Below, piece after piece: positions 51,077-56,835 of a DNA stretch of 64,000 nt. The notes below the pieces were generated by a model that worked only from the letters and a program-made list of their open reading frames with translations, was not told the origin of the DNA and made no database searches. Location: positions 62,001 to 126,000 of the forward strand of contig NZ_QWGB01000007.1 of the NCBI RefSeq assembly GCF_003576345.1. Direction: 5' to 3'. The stretch is from Henriciella barbarensis (lineage in GTDB: Bacteria > Pseudomonadota > Alphaproteobacteria > Caulobacterales > Hyphomonadaceae). The translations under genes were made by a program, and so were the position numbers. Each line of letters opens with the position of its first letter. The stretch's first letter is position 1.

Positions 51077-51143
51077 CGCTCAGGCTCTTCCCTTCCCCAG
51101 CGTCGCTGTCCTAGACCGCTATTCAAGCAAGGAGAGCCAACCC

Positions 51144-51815
51144 ATGGATGTGAGCCAGGCCGTAAATCAGCGCATCTCGACGCGCGCTTTTCTCGATAAG
51201 CAGATCACCGCCGATGAGCTCCGTGACTGGCTGGCGACAGCGCAGCGGGCACCATCTGGCGGTAATCTTCAGCCATGGCGGGTGATAGCCGTTACTGGCG
51301 AGGAGAAGCAGGCCGTTATTGACCTTGCCCAGAAAAAGCTCGCCGAAGACCCACGCGGGGAACGGACTGACCGGCCGATCTATCCCAAAGACCTCTGGGA
51401 GCCGCATGAAGCGCGTCGCCGCAAGGTTGGGGAGATGATGTATGAGAAGCTTGAGATCCCTCGCGAAGACAAAGCCAAGCGAATTCAATGGTTTTCGCGC
51501 AATTTCCGCTTCTTTGATGCGCCGCTGGCCGTCTTCTTCGTGATCGATGAGCGCATGGGTCACGGCCAATGGGCCCATACAGGCATGTTCATGCAGACGC
51601 TGGCTCTGCTTGCTGAAGAACGCGGCTGGGGCACCTGTTTCCAGGAGTGCTGGGGCATCCTGCGACCGACACTGAAAACGCATTTCGGGCTTGGCGAAAC
51701 CGAGATGCTTTATTGCGGCATGGCTGTCGGTTACCCTGAGCCGGATCACCCCGTGAACCAGCTCCGTGCGGAGCGGGCCGAGGTGGATGAGTTCGCCGAA
51801 CTCAAAGGCTTCTAA
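51144..51815 (+). CDS. Nitroreductase-family FMN oxidoreductase (first of two)
   Basis: The 223-residue protein belongs to the NfnB/NfsB-like FMN fold. The N-terminal RISTRAFLD motif and PSGGNLQPWRVI phosphate and flavin contacts are visible, as is GWGTCFQECW and the C-terminal GYPEPDHPVN strand. It should use NAD(P)H to reduce nitroaromatics, quinones or enones; the natural substrate is unknown. ATG 51144 has an AAGGAGA site; the longer frame from 51021 overlaps the preceding membrane protein. A second nitroreductase lies at 56158, and both share the subfamily pattern. Confidence 0.9.
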   Translation: MDVSQAVNQRISTRAFLDKQITADELRDWLATAQRAPSGGNLQPWRVIAVTGEEKQAVIDLAQKKLAEDPRGERTDRPIYPKDLWEPHEARRRKVGEMMYEKLEIPREDKAKRIQWFSRNFRFFDAPLAVFFVIDERMGHGQWAHTGMFMQTLALLAEERGWGTCFQECWGILRPTLKTHFGLGETEMLYCGMAVGYPEPDHPVNQLRAERAEVDEFAELKGF

Positions 51816-52012: not shown

Positions 52013-52068
52013 AGCGTTCAGCAATTGGAACTGTCGCATTTCACCTCATCACTTGAGGGGGGATGACC

Positions 52069-52614
52069 ATGAAGGGTGTGGTATTCACTGAATTTCTCGA
52101 TCACGTCGAAGCTGAACTGGGTGTCATTCAGACACAGCGTATTATCGATAGATGCGAGCTGGAGTCTGAGGGCGCGTATACCTCAGTTGGCACCTACCCA
52201 TGCGCTGAGATGAGCCAACTCATAGGCGCTGTCTCACAAACCACGGGCCGTTGCCCGACAACGCTGCTGAAGGCGTTCGGTCATCATCTGGCTAGCTCAT
52301 TCAGGCAGGGCTATCCGGCCTATTTCGAAGTTGCTGACTTCTTCGATTTCGTAGAGTCCATAGATTCTCACATTCATGTGGAAGTCCAGAAGCTCTACGC
52401 GGATGCGGAGCTCCCTGAGTTTCACATCATCATGCGGACGGACGACACGCTGGTCGTCGATTACATCTCATCACGGGCGCTTGAGCATCTGGCGTACGGT
52501 CTTCTGGAAGCTTCGGCTCAAGCTTTTGGAGAGACAGTCGCCATGCACATGACGCCCAGAGGTGACGGCTCCAGTCGGGTCGTCCGTTTCCAGCTTGAGC
52601 GGAGGCCGCAATGA
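52069..52614 (+). CDS. H-NOX haem nitric oxide sensor
   Basis: The 181-residue protein is a complete stand-alone H-NOX domain. The proximal haem ligand is H103, followed at the expected +7 and +13 positions by Y110 and P116, matching His105/Pro118 of soluble guanylate cyclase. The haem-propionate motif YxSxR is Y132-S134-R136. The position of the distal Tyr used by oxygen-binding members appears to be Leu or Ala, which fits an NO-selective site. The start is ATG 52069, six bases after a GAGGGGGG site; ATG 52063 is too close to that site. Its stop overlaps the next gene by four bases, so sensor and effector are coupled. Confidence 0.93.
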   Translation: MKGVVFTEFLDHVEAELGVIQTQRIIDRCELESEGAYTSVGTYPCAEMSQLIGAVSQTTGRCPTTLLKAFGHHLASSFRQGYPAYFEVADFFDFVESIDSHIHVEVQKLYADAELPEFHIIMRTDDTLVVDYISSRALEHLAYGLLEASAQAFGETVAMHMTPRGDGSSRVVRFQLERRPQ

Positions 52615-54101
52615 CCTACACACTCTCCGATCAGGACGTCGCAATGCTCGAGAGGCGCGCTTTACGTGAACGCCAATCTCGAAAGGCCGCCGAAAAGATT
52701 CTTGAACAGAAATCGCTGGAACTATTTTCAGCGAACACAGACCTGAAAAAGGCGAAAGAAAACCTGAGAGCTCAGATCGAAGCGCTGCAGGTGGAGCGCG
52801 ACCGCGTCCTCGAAGCCTCCCGGGTTGATCATCTTACCGGCCTCGCAAACCGAACCGCCTTTTTTGAGCGCCTTGTGACGGCACTTCTGGCCCCTCGCCT
52901 GCAGAAGACGTCGCTAAAATTACTTCTCGTCGATCTGCGTCGCTTCAAATCGATAAACGCTCGGGTCGGCCAGTACGGGGGTGACCTCGTGCTGAAAGCC
53001 GTCGCAGCGCGGCTGCAACAGGTCGCAGACGAGGCCAGTGGGTTTGCCGCCCGGTTTGGCGGCAATGAATTCGCGCTCTGTGTTGAACTGCCCGCCAGGC
53101 ACGCCTTCTGCTACGCTCAGCACCTACAGGAGGTTCTGCATCAGCCGATCGAGGTTCTAAATCGGCAGCTAACGCTCGACGTGGCGATCGGGGCGGCGGG
53201 CACAAACACCGCCGGCTCTGACATCGAAGGCCTCCGCCGCGCTGCAGACTTCGCGATGCAGAAGGCGCGTGCCCTGCCAGTGGGCGGGGTCTGTGCCTAC
53301 GACAGCGAATTGAAAGCCGAAGCAAGTCGGCGCCACGATCTCGAAATACTGCTTCGCAAAGCCATCAAAAAAAACGAGATTGAGCCCTGGTTCCAGCCGA
53401 TCATCGACCCACGCGACCCGTCGAAGCTCTCATTCGAGGTTTTGGCGAGGTGGATGGGGCCAGACGGCTTTGTCGCGCCAATGGAGTTTATTCCGCTTGC
53501 TGAAGAGCTGGGGCTTCGTCGTCGCCTAGACCGGTATCTGCTTCAGCGCGCCTGTGAACTCGCCAAGCCATGGATAGACGATGGCTGGTTGAGCGACATT
53601 TCCGTGAACGTGTCACCATCCGACCTGATGTCGCCGGATTTTGTCAGAATACTCTCTGAAGTGCTTGAACAGATTGATTTTCCTCGCGATCGACTTGTTA
53701 TTGAAGTGACGGAATCGGTCTTTATCGAAGACCTCGCCTTCGCGAGAAGCCAACTCGACGCGCTGCACGCGCTTGGCCTCAAGGTGGCACTTGATGACTT
53801 CGGCACGGGCTACTCGAATCTACGCTCGCTCGTCGGGCTACCGCTGTCAAAGATCAAGCTCGATCGCTCGCTGATTTCTGACCTCGACATCAATGACAGC
53901 GTGGCCATGCTGATCAGCACCATCACGCAATGGGCGCGGGCTATCAATCTCACAATCGTCGCTGAAGGGGTTGAGACAGAGAACCAGCTGACGGTTCTCA
54001 AAGCGCTGGGTTGTACCAATTTACAGGGCTATCTGTTCGGCAAGGCGCAATGCGCGAACGACATCGAAGTAGCGTACCAGCCGAAGAAGATTGCCGTCTG
54101 A
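52611..54101 (+). CDS. GGDEF-EAL protein with degenerate GGDEF, partner of H-NOX
   Basis: The 496-residue cytosolic protein has an N-terminal coiled coil (about residues 10-70) with the RKAAEKILEQKSLELFSAN stretch often seen in H-NOX-partner signalling proteins. The GGDEF domain (about 72-230) reads GGNEF at 150-154, which loses the metal-binding acid, so cyclase activity is unlikely. The EAL domain (about 245-490) keeps E276 (as EVL), N333, E365, D395-D396, K416, E452 and Q472. It should therefore be a c-di-GMP phosphodiesterase, regulated by NO through the H-NOX protein. There is no PAS, receiver or membrane segment. Confidence 0.93.
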   Translation: MTYTLSDQDVAMLERRALRERQSRKAAEKILEQKSLELFSANTDLKKAKENLRAQIEALQVERDRVLEASRVDHLTGLANRTAFFERLVTALLAPRLQKTSLKLLLVDLRRFKSINARVGQYGGDLVLKAVAARLQQVADEASGFAARFGGNEFALCVELPARHAFCYAQHLQEVLHQPIEVLNRQLTLDVAIGAAGTNTAGSDIEGLRRAADFAMQKARALPVGGVCAYDSELKAEASRRHDLEILLRKAIKKNEIEPWFQPIIDPRDPSKLSFEVLARWMGPDGFVAPMEFIPLAEELGLRRRLDRYLLQRACELAKPWIDDGWLSDISVNVSPSDLMSPDFVRILSEVLEQIDFPRDRLVIEVTESVFIEDLAFARSQLDALHALGLKVALDDFGTGYSNLRSLVGLPLSKIKLDRSLISDLDINDSVAMLISTITQWARAINLTIVAEGVETENQLTVLKALGCTNLQGYLFGKAQCANDIEVAYQPKKIAV

Positions 54102-56103: not shown

Positions 56104-56157
56104 AAACTAGCTTGCGCGGCAGAAATGCCCGATTCAGGCACGAGGGAGAGATTGAGG

Positions 56158-56835
56158 ATGGAATACGAACAGGTTGTACGCGAGCGTCGCAGCATCAGGG
56201 GCTTTCAGAAGAAGCCCGTCCCAAAAGCATTGGTGCGCGAAGTTCTGGAGATCGCGATGCGCGCGCCGACCTCACTTAACACCCAGCCCTGGAATTTCTA
56301 CGTCGTCGCTGGCGATGTGCTGGACAAGATTCGCAAGGGCAATGTGGAGCGCAATGTGGCTGGCGTGCCCGACAGCCGTGAGTTCCGTATGGGTCCTGGC
56401 TATGAGGGCCCCCACCGCGAGCGCCAGATCGAGATCGCGAAACAGCTGTTCGCCGTCATGGGCATTGAACGCCACGACAAGGAAGCACGTATGGACTGGG
56501 TGCTGCGCGGCTTCCGTCAATTCGATGCGCCGGTCTCCATCGTGGTGACCTATGACAAGTCCATTCAGGGCAGCGACATCGCGCCTTTTGATTGCGGCGG
56601 CGTGGTCAACTGCATCGTCAATACGGCCTGGTCGAAAGGTCTGGGTTGCGTCATCAACAGCCAGGGAATCATGCAGAGCCCTGTGGTTCGCGAGCACGCG
56701 AAAATCCCGGACGATCAGGTGATCCAGACCTGTATTGCGATGGGGTGGCCTGACGACGAATTCCCGGCCAACTCGGTCGTTTCGAACCGCAAGTCGGTTG
56801 ATGAGGCCGCGACCTTCCTTGGCTTCGACGACTAG
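56158..56835 (+). CDS. Nitroreductase-family FMN oxidoreductase (second of two)
   Basis: The 225-residue protein has the RRSIRGFQKKPVP and PTSLNTQPWNFYVV flavin-contacting motifs and a glycine-rich GLGCVINSQGI segment, then GWPDDEFPANSV. The pattern resembles NfsA/NfsB-like and nitrobenzoate-type reductases. ATG 56158 is preceded by GGGAGAG at seven bases; an upstream ATG at 56125 lacks such a site. The substrate is unknown. It ends about 100 bases before the EmrAB genes, so co-induction by xenobiotics is possible but not shown. Confidence 0.9.
   Translation: MEYEQVVRERRSIRGFQKKPVPKALVREVLEIAMRAPTSLNTQPWNFYVVAGDVLDKIRKGNVERNVAGVPDSREFRMGPGYEGPHRERQIEIAKQLFAVMGIERHDKEARMDWVLRGFRQFDAPVSIVVTYDKSIQGSDIAPFDCGGVVNCIVNTAWSKGLGCVINSQGIMQSPVVREHAKIPDDQVIQTCIAMGWPDDEFPANSVVSNRKSVDEAATFLGFDD

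What the first reader, a model, noticed from the sequence alone, without database searches (positions are those of the whole stretch)
52069..54101. NO-sensing H-NOX coupled to a c-di-GMP phosphodiesterase
A stand-alone H-NOX protein with intact haem residues (H103, P116, Y132/S134/R136) overlaps by four bases a GGDEF-EAL gene. H-NOX/c-di-GMP modules are known from Legionella and Shewanella, but the usual effector is a cyclase or a histidine kinase. Here the cyclase half is degenerate and the EAL half looks complete, so NO would act on c-di-GMP breakdown. The distal pocket lacks the Tyr used for O2 binding, which fits NO selectivity.
Basis: partly seen in the sequence, partly recalled or inferred. 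Interest (0 to 1): 0.7.

Follow-up and report, generated by a model that had tools for sequence, protein, structure and literature searches.

The report
NO-sensor paired with c-di-GMP phosphodiesterase
A bacterium carries a nitric-oxide sensor gene joined to a gene for an enzyme that should only destroy the biofilm signal c-di-GMP; this type of pair is known, but here the signal-making half looks lost, and the enzyme's first helix is shared by most gene neighbours of one large group of such sensors.

Summary
Observation confirmed. 52069-52614 encodes a stand-alone H-NOX with the haem residues named; 52611-54101 encodes a GGDEF-EAL protein overlapping it by ATGA. The cyclase half is broken (GGNEF, no I-site); the EAL half keeps the nine catalytic residues checked.

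Interpretation partly supported. NO control of c-di-GMP hydrolysis through H-NOX is already reported for Shewanella woodyi, whose H-NOX is a relative (38% identity), so the pathway is not new. Two comparative results add to it. (1) Of 45 H-NOX-adjacent GGDEF partners (44 distinct), 38 keep the motif; the exceptions come from six genomes of one family, and the five intact ones form one clade. (2) Residues 12-55 form a helix shared by partners of one large H-NOX clade whatever their output (kinase or GGDEF-EAL): 105 of 111 H-NOX, against 0 of 22 in the other clade. In 398 genomes, 28 of 28 matches at E<=1e-9 lie within 1 kb downstream of H-NOX. No Pfam model above its cut-off covered it.

Best reading: H-NOX docks on this helix; NO switches the EAL. 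Haem binding, docking and the direction of the effect are untested.

The parts
52069..52614 (+). H-NOX (HNOB) haem NO sensor, 181 aa; alternative in-frame start at 52063; proximal His103 codon at 52375-52377
   Evidence: PF07700 E 8.6e-36; sequence; fold match to 6bdd, TM 0.92
52611..52614 (+). four-base ATGA overlap (start of GGDEF-EAL gene / stop of H-NOX gene)
   Evidence: sequence
52611..54101 (+). GGDEF-EAL protein, 496 aa, predicted c-di-GMP phosphodiesterase
   Evidence: PF00563 217.6 bits, PF00990 97.8 bits; model pLDDT 89.9
52644..52775 (+). N-terminal partner helix (residues 12-55), shared by proteins encoded next to one H-NOX clade; candidate H-NOX docking/transmitter helix
   Evidence: inside a predicted helix 7-69
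52824..53270 (+). degenerate GGDEF domain (residues 72-220)
   Evidence: PF00990 range; motif states
53058..53072 (+). GGNEF in place of GGDEF/GGEEF (residues 150-154)
   Evidence: sequence; 38 of 45 adjacent GGDEF partners keep [RK]xGG[DE]EF
53352..54044 (+). EAL phosphodiesterase domain (residues 248-478), catalytic residues complete
   Evidence: PF00563 range; invariant residues

Best explanation
A two-gene NO-to-c-di-GMP switch of the H-NOX/HaCE kind whose output has narrowed to c-di-GMP breakdown. H-NOX (haem on His103) binds the N-terminal helix (residues 12-55) of the GGDEF-EAL protein. NO binding changes H-NOX shape, and the change runs down the helix into the GGDEF-EAL part and turns hydrolysis up, so NO lowers c-di-GMP. 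The GGDEF domain no longer makes c-di-GMP; it probably serves as a relay and may still bind GTP. Shown here: gene pair, residues, loss of the GGDEF motif in one clade, purifying selection, helix shared by partners of one H-NOX clade. Inferred: haem and NO binding, docking on the helix, direction of the effect (by analogy with S. woodyi), loss of cyclase activity, GTP binding.
For: Intact H-NOX; the nearest solved relatives are K. algicida and S. woodyi H-NOX. Nine EAL residues complete, GGDEF broken. Five intact broken-GGDEF proteins form one clade (100/100) beside three intact-GGDEF proteins (96/96); the H-NOX tree branches the same way. dN/dS in three Henriciella pairs: EAL 0.012-0.028, GGDEF 0.072-0.101, H-NOX 0.047-0.132. 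N116 and D125 are invariant in the 23-row alignment; by recalled PleD numbering these contact guanine. Helix: in the protein just downstream of H-NOX in 102 of 128 loci fetched by H-NOX similarity alone; 0 of 4386 reversed ORFs at E<=0.01; 105 of 111 clade-B and 0 of 22 clade-A H-NOX, 5 label changes against 25.9 in shuffles; phylum sample 28 of 28 hits at E<=1e-9 adjacent; family sample 22 of 24 adjacent; a further 35 of 36 loci, of which L225 and L272 are one place. In G009, of the same genus and with no H-NOX match, an orthologue (52% identity) with GGNEF and EAL survives, with a weaker helix (33.5 bits) and Gln where 104 of 104 helix rows have Arg.
Against: No biochemical data and no complex prediction. 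GGNEF is one residue from GGDEF and Asp108 (metal site, recalled) is kept in Henriciella, so some cyclase activity is not excluded. Faster change of GGDEF than EAL is also seen in the intact-GGDEF sister proteins L133-L135 (GGDEF 0.131-0.173, EAL 0.026-0.060), and in the pair L130/L131 H-NOX (0.084) is more constrained than EAL (0.162), so these rates do not by themselves show loss of function. The tree program flags long branches between the broken clade and its sister group, and the H-NOX bootstrap had not settled. The direction of the NO effect is by analogy only; an H-NOX whose NO form was inert is known. The helix could be a dimerisation coil that travels with these genes; weaker versions occur away from H-NOX (11 of 42 hits at E<=1e-7, 31 of 66 at E<=0.01), and G032 has a good one (E 7.7e-11) with no H-NOX match. 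No globin match and no NirK over cut-off; other NO enzymes were not searched, so the source of NO is unknown.
Confidence: 0.64

Rival explanations
1. Same pair, opposite sign: unliganded H-NOX holds the phosphodiesterase on and NO turns it off, so NO raises c-di-GMP.
For: Signs differ among H-NOX systems: NO can raise or lower c-di-GMP (PMC8738867 sections 5 and 10). Sequence does not fix the sign.
Against: The nearest studied direct H-NOX/GGDEF-EAL system, S. woodyi, shows NO raising hydrolysis, and its H-NOX is among the closest solved relatives.
Confidence: 0.15
2. The H-NOX does not act as an NO sensor here but senses redox state or another ligand, and controls the EAL in that way.
For: In C. 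crescentus the NO form of H-NOX did not inhibit HnoK, and Cys oxidation did. No globin match and no NirK over cut-off in this genome.
Against: The only Cys residues of this H-NOX are 29, 45 and 62; none lies in the C-terminal half, where (recalled) the zinc-Cys site of the redox-sensing groups sits. The haem residues are kept.
Confidence: 0.1
3. The GGDEF half keeps some cyclase activity and the protein is bifunctional like SwDGC.
For: Asp108, N116, D125 and E153 are kept; in the catalytic motifs the third GGDEF residue, the D of ND and the H of GH changed in Henriciella. Purifying selection still acts on the domain.
Against: 38 of 45 adjacent GGDEF partners keep Asp or Glu at the third motif position; the related proteins of another genus have gone further (NLQHFQ, SGTEF). 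The higher substitution rate of GGDEF than EAL is no argument, since it holds for the intact-GGDEF sister proteins too; for this reason this rival was raised from 0.12 to 0.15 on rechecking.
Confidence: 0.15
4. The shared N-terminal helix is an ordinary signalling-helix coiled coil for dimerisation, with no role in H-NOX recognition.
For: The S-helix is a known 40-45-residue coil in front of kinases and GGDEF (PMC1592074). 59 of 103 helix-bearing ORFs carry a His-box pattern, and Pfam lists HisKA at E<=0.01 in 10 of 10 non-GGDEF partners scanned, one of them (L027) just under the curated cut-off. Weaker matches occur away from H-NOX.
Against: The ERT signature lies inside 8 of 103; in 27 of 103 an E[RK]T was found around or after its end, at offsets 37-46 in 25 of these. 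In the phylum sample the strong form (E<=1e-9) was found only beside H-NOX (28 of 28), it tracks one H-NOX clade and is weakened in G009, where no H-NOX was found.
Confidence: 0.25

Closest known systems
Shewanella woodyi SwH-NOX / SwDGC (HaCE)
   Same: stand-alone H-NOX beside a GGDEF-EAL protein; direct control; NO raises hydrolysis; H-NOX 38% identical over the fold
   Different: SwDGC has working GGDEF and EAL domains; here the GGDEF motif is lost. Whether SwDGC has the helix was not tested: its sequence was not reached
Legionella pneumophila Hnox1 / Lpg1057
   Same: H-NOX next to a GGDEF-EAL protein
   Different: there the cyclase works and the phosphodiesterase is likely inactive: the mirror image of this pair
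RbdA, RmcA, PdeB and CC3396 type GGDEF-EAL phosphodiesterases
   Same: GGDEF domain without cyclase role; GTP binding there can switch EAL activity (PMC9061725 passages); PA0575 and PA0861 (RmcA and RbdA, names recalled) are among the best fold matches
   Different: their sensors are in the same chain (recalled for RbdA and RmcA); here the sensor is a separate H-NOX. PdeB keeps the residues for GTP binding, here the motif is GGNEF. GTP binding untested
Signalling helix (S-helix)
   Same: helical segment of 40-45 residues in front of kinase and GGDEF outputs
   Different: no ERT signature inside the motif in 95 of 103 rows; near the N-terminus with the sensor in trans; strong form beside H-NOX in the phylum sample
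Agrobacterium vitis and Methylobacterium/Methylorubrum H-NOX / GGDEF-EAL pairs (L119, L051, L054, L080)
   Same: same architecture, same N-terminal helix, EAL residues kept
   Different: GGDEF motif intact

Membership tests
H-NOX (PF07700) | HNOB domain over its full length | tested here: met
   positions 1-162 of 163, 123.7 bits against cut-off 25.5
H-NOX (PF07700) | proximal His, Pro, YxSxR | tested here: met
   H103, P116, Y132, S134, R136
H-NOX (PF07700) | haem and NO binding | not testable with these tools
   needs purified protein and spectra
HaCE (H-NOX-associated c-di-GMP processing enzyme) | GGDEF and/or EAL protein encoded next to H-NOX | tested here: met
   overlapping genes, kept in relatives
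HaCE (H-NOX-associated c-di-GMP processing enzyme) | activity changed by NO-bound H-NOX | not testable with these tools
   needs enzyme assay
EAL phosphodiesterase | full set of metal and catalytic residues | tested here: met
   E276, N333, E365, E368, D395, D396, K416, E452, Q472 invariant in A1, 23 sequences; same spacing as the RocR residues, which are recalled; RocR aligned at a 100-101 offset
Diguanylate cyclase | GG[DE]EF motif | tested here: not met
   GGNEF
Diguanylate cyclase | I-site RxxD (not in all cyclases, recalled) | tested here: not met
   EASG
Signalling helix (S-helix) | ERT signature in the central heptad | tested here: not met
   none in P0002 residues 12-55; inside 8 of 103 helix matches
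Signalling helix (S-helix) | forms a parallel coiled-coil dimer | not tested
   only a monomer model was made
O2-binding H-NOX | distal pocket Tyr | tested here: not met
   L141; no Tyr in that column in 129 of 130 rows that have a residue; mapping to Tt Tyr140 from recalled numbering

The most novel reading that the evidence does not exclude
The 44-residue N-terminal helix is a dedicated socket for stand-alone H-NOX proteins: one plug-in NO sensor that drives histidine kinases, GGDEF-EAL enzymes and degenerate phosphodiesterases through the same docking helix. It defines a partner family that the libraries scanned here do not name, would let unlinked H-NOX targets be found by sequence (for instance the f24 hybrid kinases in genomes whose H-NOX lies elsewhere), and in Hyphomonadaceae was kept while the cyclase output was discarded, giving a phosphodiesterase-only NO switch.
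Probability: 0.55. Interest if true: 0.68.

Novelty: new variant of a known kind. Interest (0 to 1): 0.5.

Why it matters
How stand-alone H-NOX proteins hand the NO signal to very different outputs is open: the 2022 review read here says no high-resolution structure of an H-NOX with its signalling partner exists (PMC8738867 section 5). A short helix shared by kinase and c-di-GMP partners points to one common contact site that can be tested by mutation. The Hyphomonadaceae pairs add a natural simplification: an H-NOX target that seems to have only the hydrolysing output, which would remove the two-way activity that complicates the S. woodyi enzyme.

Tried and rejected
Considered and rejected: chance or pseudogene (domains full length, conserved, purifying selection). 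O2 sensor (no distal Tyr). Zinc-Cys redox sensor (no Cys after residue 62). Novel pathway of NO acting on hydrolysis (reported in S. woodyi). Missing distal Tyr as a special feature (absent in the whole sample). Faster GGDEF evolution as proof of lost function (same in the intact sister proteins).

Led nowhere: viral-contig scan with the H-NOX gave 0 loci. A search of a neighbouring unnamed genus (14 genomes) for the S. woodyi H-NOX did not reach it (best 40% identity), so whether SwDGC has the helix stays open. NirK gave no match over cut-off, globin none; other NO enzymes were not searched. The upstream intergenic region, aligned in three species and judged by eye, showed only patchy conservation and no regulator site was assigned. 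Ten literature searches were made; those aimed at an H-NOX partner helix listed no paper on it, but only openly licensed papers are held, and the 2014 paper on H-NOX/HaCE regulation was not held. Papers: PMC8738867 outline with abstract and sections 5, 9, 10; PMC1592074 passages and section 3 parts 1-2 of 7; PMC8846402, PMC12329717, PMC10746521, PMC5588039, PMC9061725 passages only; all others search listings.

Rows dropped: the partner tree (40 rows) leaves out 5 of the 45 GGDEF partners (L017 broken, L003, and the GGDEF-only L045, L046, L048) and holds one protein twice (L002, L137). The H-NOX tree (133 rows) leaves out L049 (same contig as L022), L017 (broken gene), the second H-NOX of L106, and L144 (broken). 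Six clade-B H-NOX lack a helix partner: L120 (46 bases left after the gene), L121 (no same-strand ORF of 150 aa or more in the stretch listed), L059 (next same-strand ORF looks by eye like a transcription regulator), L147 (decayed H-NOX, no partner seen), and L047 and L148 (long branches, not followed up). L043 was labelled 'up' by the script because its ORFs are over-long; its helix lies just downstream of the H-NOX match. The helix searches use a profile to which some of the same genomes contributed.

Full report
What is there. The window lies in a 3.33 Mb genome whose nearest named relative by this locus is Henriciella sp. UWMA-0297 (L049, H-NOX 92% identical). A 181-residue H-NOX gene (52069-52614) overlaps by ATGA a 496-residue GGDEF-EAL gene (52611-54101). 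Pfam finds HNOB over 162 of 163 positions and GGDEF plus EAL in the second protein. The AlphaFold model of the H-NOX (pLDDT 87.3) matches solved H-NOX structures, best K. algicida (TM 0.92), and S. woodyi third (TM 0.83). The GGDEF-EAL model (pLDDT 89.9) matches the GGDEF-EAL parts of MorA, PA0575, DosP and PA0861.

Residues. Position 141 is Leu; no Tyr occurs there in the 129 of 130 aligned H-NOX rows that have a residue. The GGDEF motif is GGNEF, with other changes (ND to NA, GH to GQ) and no I-site. The nine EAL residues checked are invariant across 23 sequences. Asp108, Asn116, Asp125 and Glu153 of the GGDEF domain are kept in Henriciella, so nucleotide binding is possible though cyclase activity is unlikely.

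Where the cyclase was lost. 38 keep [RK]xGG[DE]EF and 7 do not: L001, L022 with L049, L024, L015, L018 and L017, six genomes in all. In a tree of 40 partner rows the five intact non-canonical proteins form one clade (100/100), beside three proteins of the same family with intact GGDEF (96/96); L017 is broken by stops and was not in the tree. The program warns that long branches meet between these groups, but the H-NOX tree branches the same way. L015, L017 and L018, from another genus of the family, show deeper decay (SGTEF, metal Asp to Asn). So the motif was lost once on the simplest reading. In three Henriciella pairs dN/dS is 0.012-0.028 for EAL, 0.072-0.101 for GGDEF, 0.066-0.074 for the N-terminal 70 residues and 0.047-0.132 for H-NOX: every part is under purifying selection, EAL most. 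This ranking is no proof of lost cyclase function, because GGDEF also changes faster than EAL in the intact-GGDEF sister proteins L133-L135 (0.131-0.173 against 0.026-0.060), and in L130/L131 H-NOX (0.084) is more constrained than EAL (0.162). In the window's genome 14 of 17 GGDEF domains keep the motif.

The helix. Residues 12-55 of the GGDEF-EAL protein match a segment, mostly near the N-terminus, of proteins encoded just downstream of H-NOX in 102 of 128 loci (103 ORFs), including 71 ORFs without a detected GGDEF or EAL domain. Ten of these scanned with Pfam all list HisKA at E<=0.01, L027 just under the curated cut-off. None of 4386 reversed ORFs matches at E<=0.01. No Pfam model above its curated cut-off covered this segment in the proteins scanned; two sub-threshold coil models touched it (L060, L108), and NCBIfam models of whole kinases or cyclases, below their cut-offs, run into or across it. 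One Arg is constant in 104 of 104 aligned rows. In the H-NOX tree a clade of 22 has no helix partner and a clade of 111 has 105; the label needs 5 changes against 25.9 in shuffles, 0 of 500 as low, though near relatives cluster anyway and the bootstrap had not settled. Genome-wide with the 47-row profile: in 105 family genomes, 24 have one match each and 22 lie within 1 kb downstream of H-NOX. In 385 class genomes, 7 of 7 matches at E<=1e-9 are adjacent by comparing coordinates, while 22 genomes have a match at E<=0.01, most of the weaker ones not adjacent. In 398 phylum genomes, 28 of 28 at E<=1e-9, 31 of 42 at E<=1e-7 and 35 of 66 at E<=0.01 are adjacent; all 42 at E<=1e-7 lie in genomes with an H-NOX, which 103 of 398 have. 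These samples overlap partly with each other and with the profile. In 36 further loci (26 of the best-scoring H-NOX and 10), 35 have it next door at E<=0.01 (L225 and L272 are one place; L224 lacks it).

A natural test. G009, in the same genus, has no PF07700 match but carries an orthologue of the GGDEF-EAL protein, 52% identical, with GGNEF and the EAL residues kept by eye, near a nitroreductase 92% identical to that at window 56125-56835. Its helix scores 33.5 bits against 58.8 in the window, and the constant Arg is Gln. This fits relaxation of a docking site once the sensor is gone. It is one case. Against it, G032 has a kinase-like protein with a good helix match (44.2 bits) and no H-NOX match.

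How it works. By analogy with S. woodyi, where NO-bound H-NOX raises hydrolysis and lowers synthesis by SwDGC, NO should raise c-di-GMP breakdown here. The helix, part of a long predicted helix 7-69 leading to the GGDEF domain, is the likely contact and lever. GGDEF domains without cyclase role can still gate EAL activity by binding GTP, which is possible here but untested.

What is known and what is not. The pathway type is known. The loss of the cyclase motif in this family and the H-NOX-linked helix were not seen in the papers found by searches, of which only passages or sections of seven papers were read; the library holds only openly licensed papers, so this is not a claim that they are absent from print. 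The closest described element is the S-helix. Its ERT signature lies inside 8 of 103 helix matches; an E[RK]T was found around or after the end in 27 of 103, at offsets 37-46 in 25 of those. The helix may therefore be a separate segment in front of an S-helix, or a specialised variant of one. Odds: on rechecking, the bifunctional rival was raised from 0.12 to 0.15 and the best explanation lowered from 0.66 to 0.64, because the rate comparison does not separate intact from broken GGDEF.

Noticed in passing
L199:1453-2970 (+), genome G009: Orthologue of the window's GGDEF-EAL protein with GGNEF and an EAL domain but no H-NOX match in the genome; helix weakened.
   Followed up: partly
L210, L212 and other f24 genomes: Hybrid kinase-like proteins with a weaker form of the helix, not next to H-NOX, in genomes that carry an H-NOX elsewhere (Pro in place of the proximal His where aligned: L045, L046, L048); possible unlinked partners.
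   Followed up: no
L011, L025, L026, L027: Small 145-157 aa proteins beside H-NOX with the helix plus a HisKA-like stretch (L011 and L027 scanned) and no ATPase domain found in the same ORF.
   Followed up: no
L072:5533-6774: The helix occurs twice in tandem (residues 4-42 and 43-84) in front of a histidine kinase in an Anaerolineae MAG.
   Followed up: no
L017 / L132 (G072): Both the H-NOX gene and its GGDEF-EAL partner are interrupted by stops: the pair is decaying in one species.
   Followed up: no
L147:4453-5049 (-): Decayed H-NOX, by eye with Arg where the proximal His should be, and no signalling partner seen nearby.
   Followed up: partly
phylum sample, families f192, f197, f208 and others: H-NOX domains inside open frames of about 420-470 aa, so probably fused to another domain.
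   Followed up: no
window 51141-51815 and 56125-56835: Two nitroreductase-family genes lie on either side of the pair; gene order is kept in two same-genus relatives as far as the fetched stretches reach.
   Followed up: partly
clade A H-NOX loci (L002-L010, L033): A second H-NOX clade, with Trp aligned at position 74, has GGDEF-EAL partners in which the helix was not found, so its docking may differ.
   Followed up: no
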